DNA of 6,208 nucleotides from Candidatus Desantisiibacteriota bacterium (GCA_016209155.1 JACQWU010000050.1:1-6208), one strand, 5' to 3'; counted from the stretch's first letter, positions 1 through 6,208 are shown. Notes: a model not told the origin generated them from the letters alone. Translations and numbers: made by a program.

Positions 1-2274
1 AAAGAAAATACTAAAGAAAGTTTAGGTTATGATCATTCTGATATGCATGATGAATCAACTGTAATTAAATATGTATTAAATAAAATTATTTCCTTTTTAC
101 CTCAAGATATTTCACCACCTCAAAATGCTTCAGTAACTATCAATAATGGATATGAGTCAACCAATACAATTGAAGTCACACTTACACTTTCTGCTACTGA
201 TGATAAAGGTGTAACTGCCTATTATGCTTCTGAAAATTCTTCTAAACCATCAGCTAATAGTGATGGATGGAAAAATTTTGCTGAGTCAGCATCTTTTATT
301 TTAAGCAGTGGTGAAGGGAATAAAACAGTTTATGTTTGGTTTAAAGATGAAGTGGGAAATATTTCAGAAATTACCAGCGATAGTATTAATTTTGTTCGCT
401 CATTTTTTCTATTTAAAGATAATGCAAAGAATGGATTGCAAAATTGGGTGCCGGAATCCATATGGAATATTGAAGAAAATAATGGAATTACATTCTTTTC
501 TGATAGCCCGGGAAGTAATTATCAAAATCAAAGTAATGTTTCTTTAACTTTAAAAAATTCTATTAATTTAACTACTATGATTAATCCTAAATTAACAATA
601 GTTCATTATTATGAGTTAGAAGAAAATTATGATTATGGTTATATAGAAATTTCAAATGATGGGGTAGAATGGACAGAGTTGTTAAAGGTAACAGGGACTG
701 CCCCATATACAAAAACACGTCATCAATTAAGTTTAAGCAATTACAAAACTTATTCAACTGCTAAAATTAGATTGCGACTATTTTCGGATAGTAATACTAC
801 AAACAACGGATGGCATATTTATGAAATTTACATACATGAAAGTGATGATACCCAATCTCCCAGCATAGATAATATAGAAATTAGTAATAATATAAATATA
901 ACGAATACTATTTACATTAATGTGAATTTATCCGCCATAGATAATGGATTTATTACAGCTTATCTTATATCTGAGAATCCGGAAGTTCCAGGTTTTGATT
1001 CTGATCAGTGGAAATATATAAAGTGGAGTTCTAACATTGAAATAAATACAGCTTTTGCTCTTAGTATGGATGATGGACAAAAAACTATTTATGTCTGGGT
1101 AAAAGATGGTTCTAATAATATTTCCAATAGCAAAAATACTAATATATATTTACAAAAAACATTACCTCAAAAAATAGTATTTGTTGGTAAAGATAATGGG
1201 AATAAAGATATTTACAGTATGAATCTGGATGGTAGCGATCAGAAAAAACTTACGGATGATATATCAGATGATATATTACCTTGCTTATCTCCTGACAGAT
1301 CTAAAATTGCTTTTGTTTCAACGCGTTTATCTAATAAGGATATCTACATATTAAATCTTGATTCAACTTGTGTAAGATATACATACAATACATTAGACGA
1401 TGCAATGCCGGCATGGTCACCTGATGGTAAAAAAATTGTTTTTAGTAGATCATCAGGGCAATATTATCCTGATATTTATACAATTGATTTTGATGGTACT
1501 AATGAAAAAAGACTTACTACTACTCAAAATGATTTTTTCCCTCAATGGTCACCTAATAGCGAAAAAATTGCTTTTATTTCTAAAAGAGATGGAGATAATG
1601 AAATTTATTTAATGAATAAAGATGGAACAAATCAAATAAATTTAACTAATAATTCTGCTTCTGATCAACTGCCGGTTTGGTCGCCAAATGGTGAAAAAAT
1701 AGCCTTTGTTTCTGATCGGGATGGTAATAATGAAATTTATTTGATTAATAGTGATAGTACAAATTTAAAAAGATTAACAAATAATAGCGCATCAGATGGA
1801 GGATGGTTAAGTTTTTCACCGGATGGGCAGAAAATAGCTTTTGAATCCGATCGAGATGGTAATATAGAAATTTATATTATAGATATAACAGGAGAAAATG
1901 AAGTAAATATTACTAATAATACAGCAAATGATACATTCCCTAATTGGACTATTTTGCAAAATAAAATATTTTTCTGTTCTAATCGGGATGGAAATAATCA
2001 GCAAATTTATATTATGGATTTAGATGGGAATAATGTTACAAATATTTCCAATAATCAAATGGAAAATTTTCTGCCTTCATATTCTCCTATTACTGAAAAA
2101 GGCGGAGGATGTTTTATTACCAAAATTCTCAATCACAATCACGCTTCAAATATGATTAAAATATTGACTAAATTTAGAGATAATTATTTATTCAACAATT
2201 TTTTAAGTAAATCATTTGTTTCTTATTATTACAAAATATCTCCACGATTATTAAATTTTATTTTAGAAAAATAA
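1..2274 (+). CDS. Multidomain surface/secreted protein: Ig-like, immune-inhibitor-A-like, PD40 propeller, CFI-box-like tail (5' partial)
   Basis: The frame is open from base 1. The first ATG (43) has no Shine-Dalgarno sequence, so the gene starts upstream; 757 residues are visible and no signal peptide can be judged. Domains by position: 1-105, tail of an unidentified domain (GYDHSDMHDEST, then a hydrophobic helix); 106-405, Ig-like module ending TVYVWFKDEVGNIS; 406-843, beta-sandwich with DSPGSNY, YDYGYIEIS and NGWHIYEIYI, the pattern of MAM-like domains in immune inhibitor A (M6) proteases and relatives; 847-1160, second Ig-like module (TIYVWVKDGSNNIS); 1171-2097, seven PD40/TolB repeats; 2101-2271, GGGCFI tail. 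Known of these families: Ig and PD40 modules bind proteins or glycans outside the cytoplasm. I infer an exported or surface-attached binding protein, perhaps with an enzyme domain upstream. No protease active site is visible, so catalysis cannot be claimed. The tail is degenerate and ends before the usual hydrophobic helix. Confidence 0.88.
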   Translation, partial: KENTKESLGYDHSDMHDESTVIKYVLNKIISFLPQDISPPQNASVTINNGYESTNTIEVTLTLSATDDKGVTAYYASENSSKPSANSDGWKNFAESASFILSSGEGNKTVYVWFKDEVGNISEITSDSINFVRSFFLFKDNAKNGLQNWVPESIWNIEENNGITFFSDSPGSNYQNQSNVSLTLKNSINLTTMINPKLTIVHYYELEENYDYGYIEISNDGVEWTELLKVTGTAPYTKTRHQLSLSNYKTYSTAKIRLRLFSDSNTTNNGWHIYEIYIHESDDTQSPSIDNIEISNNINITNTIYINVNLSAIDNGFITAYLISENPEVPGFDSDQWKYIKWSSNIEINTAFALSMDDGQKTIYVWVKDGSNNISNSKNTNIYLQKTLPQKIVFVGKDNGNKDIYSMNLDGSDQKKLTDDISDDILPCLSPDRSKIAFVSTRLSNKDIYILNLDSTCVRYTYNTLDDAMPAWSPDGKKIVFSRSSGQYYPDIYTIDFDGTNEKRLTTTQNDFFPQWSPNSEKIAFISKRDGDNEIYLMNKDGTNQINLTNNSASDQLPVWSPNGEKIAFVSDRDGNNEIYLINSDSTNLKRLTNNSASDGGWLSFSPDGQKIAFESDRDGNIEIYIIDITGENEVNITNNTANDTFPNWTILQNKIFFCSNRDGNNQQIYIMDLDGNNVTNISNNQMENFLPSYSPITEKGGGCFITKILNHNHASNMIKILTKFRDNYLFNNFLSKSFVSYYYKISPRLLNFILEK
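1171..2097 (+). repeat. Seven tandem TolB/PD40 beta-propeller repeats (protein level)
   Basis: Seven units of about 43-45 residues start with K-I-(A/V/F)-F at 1171, 1303, 1432, 1564, 1696, 1831 and 1963. The consensus is KIAFVSDRDGNNEIYLMNxDGTNxxxLTNN, then a short Asp-containing stretch, then PxWSPDG. The order of elements matches the PD40 repeat of TolB-type propellers. Seven blades would close one complete propeller. Units 4-6 are the most alike; unit 7 has lost the WSPDG signature (YSPITE), as expected for the last blade. Repetition is clear in protein but diluted in DNA by synonymous differences. Confidence 0.9.
2101..2271 (+). other. Degenerate CFI-box-like C-terminal tail of the surface protein
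   Basis: The tail begins GGGCFI directly after the propeller and continues with KILTKFRDNYLFNNFL and SFVSYYYKISPRLLNFI. This follows CFI-box-CTERM tails, whose usual form is GGG-C-FIATAAYGS, then a LREFRDxxLLTN-type stretch, then a YYxYSPPxADFI-type stretch. Here the ATAAYGS part reads TKILNHN, the SPP reads SPR, and the protein stops at ILEK, where family members normally carry a final hydrophobic segment. None of the three forward frames after the stop (2275 on) encodes such a segment; each ends within 5-13 codons. The match to the family is from memory of its consensus, not from a search. Confidence 0.6.
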
Positions 2275-2417: not shown

Positions 2418-5321
2418 ATGAATAAAATATTTTCTAAAGGATTAGAAACGCTGGGTTTTGATATAGACGATGATGCTTTTGTTTTAAACAATAGCAACAA
2501 AAAATTATCAGATCCGCAACTTGAATTTCATATAAAAAAAGCAGAAAGCTTTCAGGCTACAGCTGTTTATTTGAGAAAACAGCTTAATGGTAGTTATAAG
2601 CCTCAGGTTTACTTGTATGACTATACGGGAAAAGGTTTTAATTCAAACGAACTTACTAAAATTCAAAAAAAAATATGGAGCAGTGGTGATGCTCCATTAG
2701 CCTGTATATTTTATAGCACCGAAATAAAAATATTAGACTGTACAAAACATATCAAAGATGATAATACCCCTGAATACTTGATCGAAAGCCTCAAATTAGC
2801 CGGCAAGACTCATGAATTATATAATAAGCAATTTGCTGTAAAAGTTAAAAGTGGAGTTTTTTGGGAGGAAGAGGAAAATAAAAATAAATTTAAGTTTACC
2901 AACTCTGCGTATGATAAATTAATTAACAATATTAGAATTATTATTGGGAGACTCAAAAAAGGGTACAATGATTTACACGATGAGTTAATCAATAAATTAA
3001 TTATTCAATCAATCTTAATTAAATATTTAGAGGAAAGGATAGACGATAATAACAATAAGCTTTTATCAAATAAATTTTTTAAAAAATATGGTAGAGCAGG
3101 CACCTTTAATGATGTGTTGAGAAAAAAGGGAAAAATAGTTGAATTACTAATAGATTTAAATGATAAAGAAATAGGATTTAACGGCAACATATTTTATTGG
3201 GATGAAAAAGAAAAATCAGTTCTTAAGGGGCTGGATTTATCTGTCTTAGCAGAGTTGCTTGAAACAAATAGTTCATCAGAATCAGGTCAACTCTATTTGT
3301 GGCGATATTTTGAATTCAAATATATTCCGGTAGAGCTTATTAGTAGATTATACGAAGAGTTTTTAGGCAAAGACAAAAGGAGCGAAGGTTTATATTACAC
3401 GCCGTCTCATTTAGTCCAGTTACTGGTTGATGAAGCCCTTCCATTAAAAAAATTCAAAGAAATAGATTTAGATAATTTCCAAATTTTAGACCCTGCCTGC
3501 GGTTCAGGTATTTTTTTAGTAATTGTTTTTAAACGGCTTGTTCAAATATGGCGATTACAGCATAAAATGAATCTGCCTGGATTATCTGACTTAAAAAAAC
3601 TGTTAAAAAATATTTATGGTATAGACAAAGAAAAGCAGGCAGTACGTTTAGCATCTTTTAGTTTGTGCCTGGCATTATGTAATGAATTAGAGCCTATAAA
3701 AATTATTAATGACCTTAAGTTTGATGATTTAAGAGAAACAAACATTATTGAATCTGATTTTTTTATTGAACATAAACTAAAAAACAAAAAATTTGATTTG
3801 ATTATTGGCAACCCGCCTTTTAATATAGGAGCTCTGAAAAATTACTCAAAATTTTGGGATTACGAAGACGAAAAAGTTAAAATACCTCAAGGACAAATTG
3901 CCTTAAAATTTCTTTCTGATTCTTTAAATTATTTACAAGAAAAAGGGCTGCTATGTTTGATAATTAAAGCATCTAGTTTGCTCTATAATCACACATCTGA
4001 AAAATATAAACAACTATTGTTTTCAAAACTAAATGTAATTCAGGTTTTAGATTTTACCGCATTAGCTAGCAATAATTCATTATGGGAAAATGGGGCAGAT
4101 GTGGCTACAGCAGCGATTTTTATTAGAAAGGAAAAACCTGATTTTCATAAAAACATTCTTCATCTAACTTTTAGAAGAACAAAGGCAACCAAAGAAAGAA
4201 TTGTTTTTGAAATTGACGAATACGATTTACATTTTATTAATAGACAAACGGCTATTGAAAATAAGGTTGTGTGGAAAAACAATTTATTGGGCGGTGGAAG
4301 AATAAAGAGTATTGTTGATAAAAATAATATTGAGAGCTTTAAAAAATATTTAGTGAAAAATAATTGCAAAGCAGATGAGGGATTCAAAGTGGGTTCTAAT
4401 GGGAAATTGAGTCCCAAGTTTATTTATGAAATGCAGACACTACCAACGGATGCAATTGACGAGGATAATGTAGATTTAAGTAAACTGGGAAATGTAAATA
4501 AAAGTATTAAATTTGAAAAGATACCAAACAAAGTAGTATTTACTGCCCCTAATATTTTAATTAAAGAGAATATCGGGGTAAAAAGACTACCAATTCACTT
4601 AAATAAAAAAGCATCATTCTCATTTCAACATAAAATAGTTGGAATTTCACACTGGGAAAACGATATAATAGTCTTAGCCAAAATTATTAGTTCTTTTGAA
4701 AAATACAATGATTTCTACAGATTTTATATTTTTGCTACCAGTGGACAGGTTTTAGTAAATAAAAATACTGCTATATTAAAAACAGACATAATGCAAGTCC
4801 CTTTCATCGGGATAGATGACAATATAACTTTTTCAGATTTTGATAATAATATTATTAATGATGTTAATATATTTATGCAAGATTTTATTAGGCATGGCGA
4901 AAATTCTGAAGCAGTAAAACAAATCTCAAAAAAAAACTTCAAGCAAATTCTACAAATTCTAAGCCATTATGGCAATGAATTTTCTAAAGTTTTAAATCTA
5001 ACCTACGAAAACAAAAATAAAAAATTTAGGTTAAGTGATGTTGTTAAACTTGATAATTCATTTATTGCTACGATTTTTAAATACGATAATATTGAATCAA
5101 AAGACCCGATTTATCATGAGGATAATTTAGAATTAAATTTAAAAGAATTAAGCAATGAAGAAGTTTCAAAGCATTTAAACATCAACAGAATAATAAAGTT
5201 ATATTCTCGAAAAGACACTATTATTTTTATTAAACCAAATCAATACAGGTATTGGCTTTCCCTAATTGCTTATAGGGATGCCGATAAATGTTTTTCTGAT
5301 TTAGCTAAATTGGGATACTAA
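2418..5321 (+). CDS. N6-adenine DNA methyltransferase (gamma class, Eco57I/TaqI-like) of a restriction-modification module
   Basis: 967 residues. Start: an in-frame TAA at 2412-2414 rules out any earlier start; the Shine-Dalgarno is weak. Predicted role: transfer of a methyl group from S-adenosylmethionine to adenine N6 in a specific DNA site. Domains: 1-125, alpha/beta region with IWSSGDAPL (W87) and no clear nuclease motif; about 160-310, mostly helical, like the N-terminal part of HsdM-type enzymes; YYTPSH (326-331), motif X; DPACGSG (358-364), motif I that binds the cofactor; YGID (400-403), acidic end of the next strand; NPPFN (465-469), catalytic motif IV. The order X, I, IV, then recognition region defines the gamma class. 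About 600-800 resembles the TaqI-like C-terminal specificity domain (APNILIKE at 710-717, VPF near 794-796). Residues 830-967 form an extra segment with KPNQYRYW (939-946) and RDAD (953-956). No helicase motifs. It overlaps the nuclease gene by one base. The specificity cannot be predicted. Confidence 0.93.
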   Translation: MNKIFSKGLETLGFDIDDDAFVLNNSNKKLSDPQLEFHIKKAESFQATAVYLRKQLNGSYKPQVYLYDYTGKGFNSNELTKIQKKIWSSGDAPLACIFYSTEIKILDCTKHIKDDNTPEYLIESLKLAGKTHELYNKQFAVKVKSGVFWEEEENKNKFKFTNSAYDKLINNIRIIIGRLKKGYNDLHDELINKLIIQSILIKYLEERIDDNNNKLLSNKFFKKYGRAGTFNDVLRKKGKIVELLIDLNDKEIGFNGNIFYWDEKEKSVLKGLDLSVLAELLETNSSSESGQLYLWRYFEFKYIPVELISRLYEEFLGKDKRSEGLYYTPSHLVQLLVDEALPLKKFKEIDLDNFQILDPACGSGIFLVIVFKRLVQIWRLQHKMNLPGLSDLKKLLKNIYGIDKEKQAVRLASFSLCLALCNELEPIKIINDLKFDDLRETNIIESDFFIEHKLKNKKFDLIIGNPPFNIGALKNYSKFWDYEDEKVKIPQGQIALKFLSDSLNYLQEKGLLCLIIKASSLLYNHTSEKYKQLLFSKLNVIQVLDFTALASNNSLWENGADVATAAIFIRKEKPDFHKNILHLTFRRTKATKERIVFEIDEYDLHFINRQTAIENKVVWKNNLLGGGRIKSIVDKNNIESFKKYLVKNNCKADEGFKVGSNGKLSPKFIYEMQTLPTDAIDEDNVDLSKLGNVNKSIKFEKIPNKVVFTAPNILIKENIGVKRLPIHLNKKASFSFQHKIVGISHWENDIIVLAKIISSFEKYNDFYRFYIFATSGQVLVNKNTAILKTDIMQVPFIGIDDNITFSDFDNNIINDVNIFMQDFIRHGENSEAVKQISKKNFKQILQILSHYGNEFSKVLNLTYENKNKKFRLSDVVKLDNSFIATIFKYDNIESKDPIYHEDNLELNLKELSNEEVSKHLNINRIIKLYSRKDTIIFIKPNQYRYWLSLIAYRDADKCFSDLAKLGY

Positions 5322-5977
5322 TGATTGCAGAAGAATATCAAAATAGCTATCAACCAAATTCAAGTATTTCAAAAGGATCCACTGTAAAATTAATTATTAA
5401 ATCCTTTATTGAAACAACTCCAATTTTCAAAGCGCATATTAAAACATTTACGGTCAAAACACTCAACGAAGAAGAACAAACGCAAGAATTTGTTAACATT
5501 ATGAGAAGAAAAACTCAATATTATCCTTTTCTAATCGGACAGGAGAAAAAAGACCTTTACCATGGCGCAAAAGGAAAACCTGACTTTTATTTTTATAGCA
5601 GGGAAGAATCAGAAAGCACTGAATCACTTTTTGATGTTGAAGCTAAACGTTTACCAAGTCCTCCGCCCAAAAGTAGGGAAAAAGAATATGTTATCGGAGA
5701 TAAAAGTAATGGAGGCATAGAAAGATTTAAAAACGAAAAGCATGGCAAAGGTTTATCGGAATGTGGCATGCTTGGTTTTATCGAGACAGAGGATTCAAAT
5801 TTTTGGTTAGCAAAAATCAATGAATGGCTTGAAGAATTATCAAAATCTAATGAAAATTGGGTTAAAGATGAAACATTAAAAGAGATTAAAAATAAAATAG
5901 TTTACACTTATCTGAATTCTATTGTTCATACAATATCTAAGCGAGATTTAAAATTACATCATTTTTGGATAAAATAG
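5321..5977 (+). CDS. Putative PD-(D/E)XK restriction endonuclease subunit, partner of the methyltransferase
   Basis: 218 residues. I do not recognise the named family. The start ATG shares its A with the methyltransferase stop (TAATG), with GGGA five bases upstream, so translation is probably coupled. A PD-(D/E)XK signature is visible: P87-D88 (GKPDFYFY) on a predicted strand, then F104-DVEAK-109 on the next, giving D88, E107 and K109 as candidate metal-binding/catalytic residues; a helix around EEEQTQEF (50-57) could supply the preceding Glu. Later come GGIERF (131-136), a strand LGFIE (151-155) and the C-terminal end HHFWIK. There is no signal peptide, membrane segment or obvious DNA-recognition domain, so site choice probably comes from the methyltransferase. 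Inference: it cuts DNA that its partner has not methylated. A non-cutting accessory subunit is possible. The short length fits the nuclease core plus little else. Confidence 0.75.
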   Translation: MIAEEYQNSYQPNSSISKGSTVKLIIKSFIETTPIFKAHIKTFTVKTLNEEEQTQEFVNIMRRKTQYYPFLIGQEKKDLYHGAKGKPDFYFYSREESESTESLFDVEAKRLPSPPPKSREKEYVIGDKSNGGIERFKNEKHGKGLSECGMLGFIETEDSNFWLAKINEWLEELSKSNENWVKDETLKEIKNKIVYTYLNSIVHTISKRDLKLHHFWIK

Positions 5978-6008: not shown

Positions 6009-6208
6009 ATGATGGAATCTGTTAAGGTATATGAGGATGAGTGTGTGGATTTTCTCACAAAAAATCAATACCGGATCATCCAGAAAAAAGATGGATTCCG
6101 TTTTTCTCTTGATGCTGTTCTTTTGGCAAGTTTTTGTCAGCTGAAAGATGGAGACAGAATTATTGATCTTGGGACAGGAAGCGCTATTATTCCTCTAAGT
6201 ATTGTTAA
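6009..6208 (+). CDS. tRNA1(Val) (adenine(37)-N6)-methyltransferase family protein, TrmN6/YabB-like (3' partial)
   Basis: 66 codons are visible before the right edge cuts the gene. The N-terminus reads like the COG4123 (TrmN6/YfiC, B. subtilis YabB) family: an acidic DECVDFL stretch, YRIIQ (22-26), then GFRFSLDAVLLASF (29-42), then the SAM-binding motif I DLGTGSA (53-59) and IIPL. In this family the enzyme methylates N6 of A37 in valine tRNA; YabB homologues have less well-defined targets. Starts at 6009 and 6012 are adjacent ATGs; the ribosome site fits either. The third glycine of motif I is Ala59 where the family usually has Gly. The visible part has about 36% G+C (73 of 200 bases by hand count), distinctly more than the methyltransferase upstream, which suggests this is resident chromosomal DNA beside an accessory module. 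Gene symbol withheld because orthology to trmN6 is not proven by 66 residues. Confidence 0.82.
   Translation, partial: MMESVKVYEDECVDFLTKNQYRIIQKKDGFRFSLDAVLLASFCQLKDGDRIIDLGTGSAIIPLSIV

What the first reader, a model, noticed from the sequence alone, without database searches (positions are those of the whole stretch)
2418..5977. Compact two-gene restriction-modification-like module without motor or specificity subunit
Seen: a 967-residue gamma-class adenine methyltransferase with its own TaqI-like recognition region is fused by a TAATG overlap to a 218-residue PD-(D/E)XK protein. Known: Type I and III systems need a helicase/ATPase; Type IIG enzymes carry nuclease and methylase in one chain; simple Type II endonucleases usually recognise their own site. 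Inference: here the large protein supplies recognition and modification and the small one only the cut, a split version of a Type IIG-like enzyme. That layout is less well described and may be a distinct anti-phage system.
Basis: partly seen in the sequence, partly recalled or inferred. Interest (0 to 1): 0.62.

Follow-up and report, generated by a model that had tools for sequence, protein, structure and literature searches.

The report
Split restriction enzyme: methylase plus nuclease
Two overlapping bacterial genes encode a DNA-marking enzyme that also reads the target sequence and a small DNA-cutting partner; the pair stays together in about ten bacterial phyla and looks like a restriction enzyme split into two parts, a layout for which I found no description.

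Summary
In detail: window 2418-5321 is a 967-aa gamma-class adenine methyltransferase, 5321-5977 a 218-aa protein, overlapping at TAATG. [quoted passage not shown] no Pfam or PADLOC family describes it. No motor or specificity subunit is conserved; a small ribbon-helix-helix gene lies upstream in about 60% of loci. The methyltransferase chain lacks a nuclease motif. In several close pairs the predicted recognition domain has diverged to about 50% identity while the rest of the enzyme and the nuclease stay near 90%, so recognition most likely belongs to the methyltransferase and the nuclease only cuts. Split Type IIG-like systems are known (Blow 2016), but the printed examples carry translocases and other nucleases. 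Verdict: new, motor-less variant of a known kind; cleavage and phage defence untested.

The parts
2418..5321 (+). Gamma-class N6-adenine DNA methyltransferase with built-in recognition domain (967 aa)
   Evidence: Pfam N6_Mtase/Eco57I; PADLOC REase_MTase_IIG profile, residues 77-747; AF2 model pLDDT 76.4, pTM 0.82; CamA Z 28.5, BrxX 24.8, MmeI 23.8, DrdV 22.4
2418..2795 (+). N-terminal domain (residues 1-126) in the place of the Type IIG nuclease domain; lacks the D...ExK residues (inferred pseudo-nuclease)
   Evidence: helix 33-44, strands 49-54 and 60-68, helix 76-89, strands 94-98 and 102-107; DrdV alignment starts at 44/44; no conserved [DE]xK in 32 orthologues or 28 diverse N-termini
2898..3329 (+). 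Helical connector (residues 161-304, boundaries approximate)
   Evidence: alignments to MmeI, BrxX, BsaXI and BpuSI start at residues 162-166
3330..4247 (+). Methyltransferase catalytic domain; SAM motif DPACGSG at 3489-3509, catalytic NPPF at 3810-3821
   Evidence: D358, C361-G364 and N465-F468 invariant in 32 sequences
4260..4892 (+). Predicted target-recognition domain (residues about 615-825), hypervariable between close relatives
   Evidence: covered by CamA/MmeI/DrdV structure matches
4905..5318 (+). Conserved C-terminal domain of the methyltransferase (residues about 830-967)
   Evidence: KPxxxRxW...RDAD conserved
5321..5977 (+). Small PD-(D/E)XK protein (218 aa), predicted DNA-cutting subunit; its ATG overlaps the methyltransferase stop (TAATG)
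   Evidence: AF2 pLDDT 84.8; restriction-enzyme matches EcoT38I, Bse634I, McrC, SgrAI, EcoRV, DrdV nuclease chain, Z 4.9-6.2; conserved downstream of the methyltransferase
5468..5470 (+). Putative catalytic Glu50 (first core helix)
   Evidence: invariant in 35 sequences
5582..5584 (+). Putative catalytic Asp88 (KPDFYF), start of strand 89-93
   Evidence: matched by eye to the IDL of the other orthologues (MAFFT misplaces this loop)
5639..5647 (+). Putative catalytic Glu107-x-Lys109 (EAK)
   Evidence: E-x-K-R-L-P in 86 of 86 orthologues

Best explanation
This is a two-gene restriction-modification system, in effect a Type IIG enzyme whose cutting domain is a second protein. The 967-aa protein binds a specific DNA sequence through its C-terminal recognition domain and methylates an adenine there, protecting host DNA (by homology). 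Where the site is unmethylated, the 218-aa PD-(D/E)XK protein, made from the overlapping gene and docked on the methyltransferase, cuts the DNA; it has little or no sequence specificity of its own and needs no ATP-driven motor. The methyltransferase's N-terminal domain sits where the nuclease domain lies in Type IIG enzymes but lacks the catalytic residues; it is a plausible docking surface. Shown: gene pairing, catalytic motifs, predicted folds, recognition-domain divergence independent of the nuclease, absence of a conserved motor gene. Inferred: complex formation, cleavage, docking on the N-terminal domain, phage defence.
For: Pairing: in nuclease-first searches every locus with enough upstream DNA has the methyltransferase directly upstream on the same strand, apart from one remnant contig. 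Methyltransferase-first searches of about 1,830 genomes, plus two plasmids: 38 of 38 assessable relatives are followed by a D...ExK protein, closest in-frame start -20 to +12 nt from the stop. Co-inheritance: pairwise distances of the two proteins correlate at r 0.94 over 70 non-redundant loci, against at most 0.38 in 2000 permutations. Catalysis: E-x-K-R-L-P in 86/86 orthologues; nuclease fold. No nuclease motif in the methyltransferase, whereas single-chain relatives carry one. Recognition: L052/L076 are 86-98% identical outside the recognition domain, 52% within it, nuclease 85%; L048/L060 are 90-95%, 53%, 87%; partial correlation of nuclease with flanks given TRD 0.81, with TRD given flanks 0.32. 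No conserved motor in 60 non-redundant neighbourhoods.
Against: No biochemical evidence of cutting or methylation. The nuclease fold matches are weak (Foldseek none below 1e-3; Z at most 6.2 for a nuclease, below the tool's own caution level, with unrelated Rep15 on top). The partial correlation of nuclease with TRD is small but not zero. Recognition-domain divergence shows changed sequence, not proven changed specificity. Linkage alone would also be expected of an ordinary Type II pair. Of the weaker methyltransferase hits on plasmids only five were opened: two have the small gene, two are short methyltransferases without it (L094, L096), one is a single-chain Type IIG (L095).
Confidence: 0.75

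Rival explanations
1. An ordinary Type II pair: the small protein recognises the same short sequence by itself and cuts it, and the large methyltransferase only protects it.
For: 218 aa is a normal size for a Type IIP enzyme and the fold matches include Bse634I, SgrAI and EcoRV; tight linkage is typical of R-M pairs.
Against: Nuclease sequence does not follow recognition-domain divergence. The methyltransferase has full Type IIG layout (N-terminal nuclease-like domain, connector, MTase, TRD) and is about twice the size of M.TaqI (about 420 aa, PMC3874165).
Confidence: 0.15
2. A defence system that does not cut at the methyltransferase's sites, for example BREX-like exclusion, or a small nuclease that attacks modified or otherwise marked phage DNA.
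For: The methyltransferase is a structural relative of BrxX/PglX; some neighbours are defence genes (AbiH, Shedu, TIR, SIR2).
Against: No conserved BREX partner in the neighbourhoods; the nuclease keeps its active-site pattern in 86/86.
Confidence: 0.06
3. A regulatory or orphan methyltransferase whose small neighbour is not a nuclease.
For: Closest solved fold is the orphan methyltransferase CamA.
Against: Near-absolute linkage and invariant catalytic residues of the small protein.
Confidence: 0.04

Closest known systems
Type IIG / IIL restriction-modification enzymes (MmeI, DrdV, BpuSI, Eco57I)
   Same: Gamma-class adenine methyltransferase with N-terminal nuclease-like domain, helical connector and C-terminal recognition domain in the same order; 32/32 orthologues hit PADLOC's REase_MTase_IIG profiles
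   Different: No catalytic PD-(D/E)XK in the chain; the nuclease is a separate protein of roughly 206-275 aa
Type IIG-like systems with separate endonuclease (AchA6III, OspHL35III, MexAMORF1192P; Blow et al. 2016, PMC4752239)
   Same: Methyltransferase with TRD lacking PD-ExK; endonuclease on another peptide
   Different: Those carry a translocase and PLD, GIY-YIG or HNH nucleases; here there is no translocase and the nuclease is a small PD-(D/E)XK protein
Haloferax volcanii HVO_A0006 / HVO_A0237 (PMC4389544)
   Same: Proposed split Type IIG made of a PD-(D/E)XK fragment and a methyltransferase lacking it
   Different: Unlinked fragments of one broken gene; here a conserved adjacent pair with a different small nuclease and a retained degenerate N-terminal domain
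Type IIH / Type 1 1/2 systems (AhdI; PMC4081073)
   Same: Separate nuclease with a gamma-class methyltransferase
   Different: AhdI has a separate S subunit and a Type IIP-like REase
R.BspD6I heterodimeric endonuclease
   Same: From memory: a small nuclease subunit directed by a large subunit that does the recognising; its small subunit is among the structure matches (2p14, Z 4.6)
   Different: Its large subunit is a nicking nuclease, not a methyltransferase (from memory)

Membership tests
Type IIG restriction enzyme | Nuclease and methyltransferase in one polypeptide | tested here: not met
   No D...ExK in the methyltransferase N-terminus; nuclease on a separate ORF; no single ORF matched both profiles
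Type IIG restriction enzyme | Gamma-class NPPY/F adenine methyltransferase with C-terminal recognition domain | tested here: met
Type IIG restriction enzyme | Cleavage at fixed distance from the site, SAM-stimulated | not testable with these tools
   Needs purified proteins
Type IIG-like split systems of Blow et al. 2016 | Methyltransferase/TRD lacking PD-ExK plus a separate endonuclease peptide | tested here: met
Type IIG-like split systems of Blow et al. 2016 | Translocase, present in the printed separate-nuclease examples (AchA6III, OspHL35III, MexAMORF1192P) | tested here: not met
   No flanking gene family recurs in more than 5 of 60 non-redundant loci, apart from one 18-locus family that is likely a shadow frame of the upstream regulator region
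Type I R-M | HsdR helicase-nuclease and separate HsdS | tested here: not met
   Neither is conserved beside the pair
Type III R-M | Res subunit with helicase plus nuclease | tested here: not met
   218-aa nuclease without helicase; no conserved motor gene nearby
BREX | PglX accompanied by PglZ and BrxC-type genes | tested here: not met
   No recurrent partner genes; PglX models score 31-52 bits against cut-offs of 400-900
[quoted passage not shown]
   fold matches to restriction enzymes are consistent but weak
Type IIP restriction endonuclease with own specificity | Nuclease recognises the site without the methyltransferase | tested here: inconclusive
   Recognition-domain divergence test argues against it; no biochemistry

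The most novel reading that the evidence does not exclude
A distinct Type II layout, R + M~S without a motor: a small nuclease with no specificity of its own is positioned by the methyltransferase's catalytically dead nuclease-like domain, so that one recognition module governs both activities and the same nuclease serves many specificities.
Probability: 0.4. Interest if true: 0.72.

Novelty: new variant of a known kind. Interest (0 to 1): 0.56.

Why it matters
It is a compact restriction layout, found in roughly 0.3-4% of genomes in the class or phylum samples searched here, whose nuclease family has no Pfam or PADLOC model, so annotation sees only a 'Type IIG' methyltransferase or 'N-6 DNA methylase' next to a hypothetical protein. 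If the mechanism holds, a nuclease without specificity works in trans with recognition domains that diverge or are swapped in nature: a natural example of modular sequence-directed cutting, and a clean test of how Type IIG, Type I and Type II systems are related by gene fission and fusion.

Tried and rejected
Pfam, NCBIfam, PADLOC and PHROGs for the small protein: no usable hit. PDB sequence searches with the small protein and its profile: nothing meaningful. Foldseek on the nuclease: no match below 1e-3; VIA gave restriction enzymes but at middling Z, with unrelated Rep15 on top. Pfam on 28 N-terminal domains of the methyltransferases for an HsdR-like signal: none, so the pseudo-nuclease reading rests on predicted topology and a DrdV alignment range only. 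A three-sequence alignment of single-chain Type IIG N-termini was too poor to use. Second copy in the window's own genome, or a copy in 97 other sampled genomes: none found. Phage genomes: no nuclease match. Literature searches found no description of the motor-less two-gene form; only open-licence papers are held, and the supplementary tables of Blow et al. could not be read.

Full report
WHAT IS THERE. The window holds a 967-aa ORF (2418-5321) and a 218-aa ORF (5321-5977) on the + strand that share one base at TAATG. The first is a gamma-class adenine methyltransferase: Pfam N6_Mtase and Eco57I above cut-off, DPACGSG and NPPF motifs, and a model (pLDDT 76.4, pTM 0.82) whose best structural matches are CamA, BrxX, MmeI, DrdV, BsaXI, BpuSI and M.TaqI. 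The second has no match in any family library but models well (pLDDT 84.8) with the PD-(D/E)XK order helix-strand-strand-strand-helix-strand. E50, E107 and K109 are invariant in 35 sequences. The window's catalytic Asp is most likely D88 of KPDFYF, at the start of a strand; the aligner misplaces this loop, so D88 is my reading. Structure matches are mainly restriction nucleases (EcoT38I, Bse634I, McrC, SgrAI, EcoRII, BstEII, EcoRV, the DrdV nuclease chain, BspD6I small subunit), but at modest Z (up to 6.2; unrelated Rep15 scores 6.7), so the nuclease call rests on motif, topology and genetics together.

IS THE PAIR REAL? Nuclease-first: a scan of GTDB species genomes gave 80 loci whose record titles name Pseudomonadota, Bacteroidota, Planctomycetota, Verrucomicrobiota, Acidobacteriota, Armatimonadota, Syntrophobacteraceae, Hydrogenedentota, Poribacteria and a cyanobacterial MAG. 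Wherever upstream DNA is present the methyltransferase lies directly upstream on the same strand. Of 87 measured gaps (the window is counted twice), 85 lie between -4 and +15 nt; the others are +77 (L090) and +304 (L004, where the frame is open from close to the methyltransferase stop, so the start codon chosen is probably wrong). Exceptions are a contig edge (L071) and one apparent remnant without the methyltransferase, present in two collections (L088 = L091). Plasmids: the 20 records with a nuclease homologue are the same 20 that head the methyltransferase search.

Methyltransferase-first: profile searches over about 1,830 genomes gave further orthologues and a sister group of more distant methyltransferases. 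All 38 assessable loci, plasmid L092 and L093 included, are followed at once by a protein with a D...ExK motif, the closest in-frame start codon lying -20 to +12 nt from the methyltransferase stop. In one of them (L128) the automatic motif match fell at the wrong place, but RFDIKF...GVEAKNL is visible in the sequence. L125 and L147 end at the contig edge and in L143 the methyltransferase frame is broken. Of the weaker plasmid hits only five were opened: L092 and L093 have the pair, L094 and L096 are short methyltransferases without it, L095 is a single-chain Type IIG. Sister nucleases are homologous to the window's family by profile comparison (probability 99.1, E 1.3e-18). The two proteins' pairwise distances correlate at 0.94 over 70 non-redundant loci (permutation maximum 0.38); this shows that they travel together, as linked genes would.

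IS THERE A MOTOR OR A SPECIFICITY SUBUNIT? Clustering flanking ORFs in 60 non-redundant neighbourhoods gave no third conserved gene: after one 18-locus family whose example looks like a shadow frame over the upstream regulator region, the next families occur in at most 5 loci and read as recombinase, transporter, conjugation and integrase genes. A small gene that reads as ribbon-helix-helix lies upstream in 49 of 82 loci, mostly Proteobacteria, but not in the window. Some plasmid copies sit beside defence genes (AbiH, Shedu, TIR, SIR2).

WHERE IS RECOGNITION? Among orthologues I compared identity domain by domain. In L052/L076 the N-terminal, connector, catalytic and C-terminal regions are 92, 86, 92 and 98% identical, the recognition domain 52%, the nuclease 85%. 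L048/L060: 91, 95, 90, 90, TRD 53, nuclease 87. L081/L085: 94-98, TRD 75, nuclease 95. Over 3,132 pairs the nuclease follows the flanks (partial correlation 0.81) far more than the TRD (0.32); these pairs are not independent, so the numbers are descriptive. If the nuclease read the sequence itself it should change with the recognition domain; it does not. This is the best evidence that the large protein recognises and the small one only cuts.

WHY CALL IT SPLIT TYPE IIG? Structural matches to MmeI, BrxX, BsaXI and BpuSI begin at residues 162-166, i.e. at the helical connector; residues 1-126 precede it where Type IIG enzymes carry their nuclease. This segment is predicted as helix-strand-strand-helix-strand-strand and the DrdV alignment starts at residue 44 of both, but no D...ExK is conserved in it in 32 orthologues or 28 diverse members. 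Single-chain relatives met in passing keep the motif: L095 PDWLVYLEPGGTPYFLVEDK, L013 second enzyme VEVGATVIEVK, L018 second enzyme RPDYAITVQKALVGFVELK. I infer a decayed nuclease domain, possibly the docking site of the active one; Pfam finds no HsdR-like signal there, so this part stays an inference.

KNOWN OR NEW? Reviews define Type IIG by an R domain in the same chain as the methyltransferase and list R~M~S and R~M + S layouts (PMC3874165, PMC4081073). Blow et al. 2016 reported Type IIG-like systems with MmeI-like methyltransferases lacking PD-ExK and separate nucleases, but the printed examples include a translocase and PLD, GIY-YIG or HNH nucleases (PMC4752239). A split PD-(D/E)XK/methyltransferase pair was suggested for H. 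volcanii from unlinked fragments (PMC4389544). I found no description of the motor-less two-gene form with a small PD-(D/E)XK protein; the paper library is partial and REBASE itself could not be searched. PADLOC labels the methyltransferase 'REase_MTase_IIG' in 32/32 orthologues and has no model for the nuclease, so current annotation may miss the cutting half. I file it as a new variant of a known kind.

Noticed in passing
window 1-2274: C-terminal part of a large protein with PD40/TolB-like beta-propeller repeats and a CFI-box-CTERM domain; unrelated to the finding.
   Followed up: no
window 6009-6206: Start of a small methyltransferase gene with weak TrmN/PRK14968-type matches, continuing beyond the window in L120.
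   Followed up: partly
L119 (genome G391, same genome as L010): The Prevotellaceae MAG with the closest relative of the window's pair carries a second, diverged copy of the pair.
   Followed up: partly
upstream of the methyltransferase in 49 of 82 loci, e.g. L002:2610-2804: About 65-aa protein that reads as ribbon-helix-helix (LNFKV...FKGFAV..GI.M..LLKEGF), a likely regulator of the module.
   Followed up: partly
L013:6607-9633 and L018:1-2505: A single-chain Type IIG-like gene with intact PD-ExK lies next to or near the split pair in the same locus.
   Followed up: partly
L090: The pair occurs on a contig classed as viral in IMG/VR.
   Followed up: no
L088/L091 603-1343; L094:3866-5146; L020, L021, L030, L040, L143: Decayed copies: a nuclease without methyltransferase, a short methyltransferase (about 426 aa) with the small upstream gene but no nuclease, and several copies with broken methyltransferase frames.
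   Followed up: no
L092:5526-6215 and L109:1633-2343: A branch whose small protein has EAK without the KRL and YVxxGMxRF motifs of the rest, partnered with longer (about 1,075-1,100 aa) methyltransferases.
   Followed up: no
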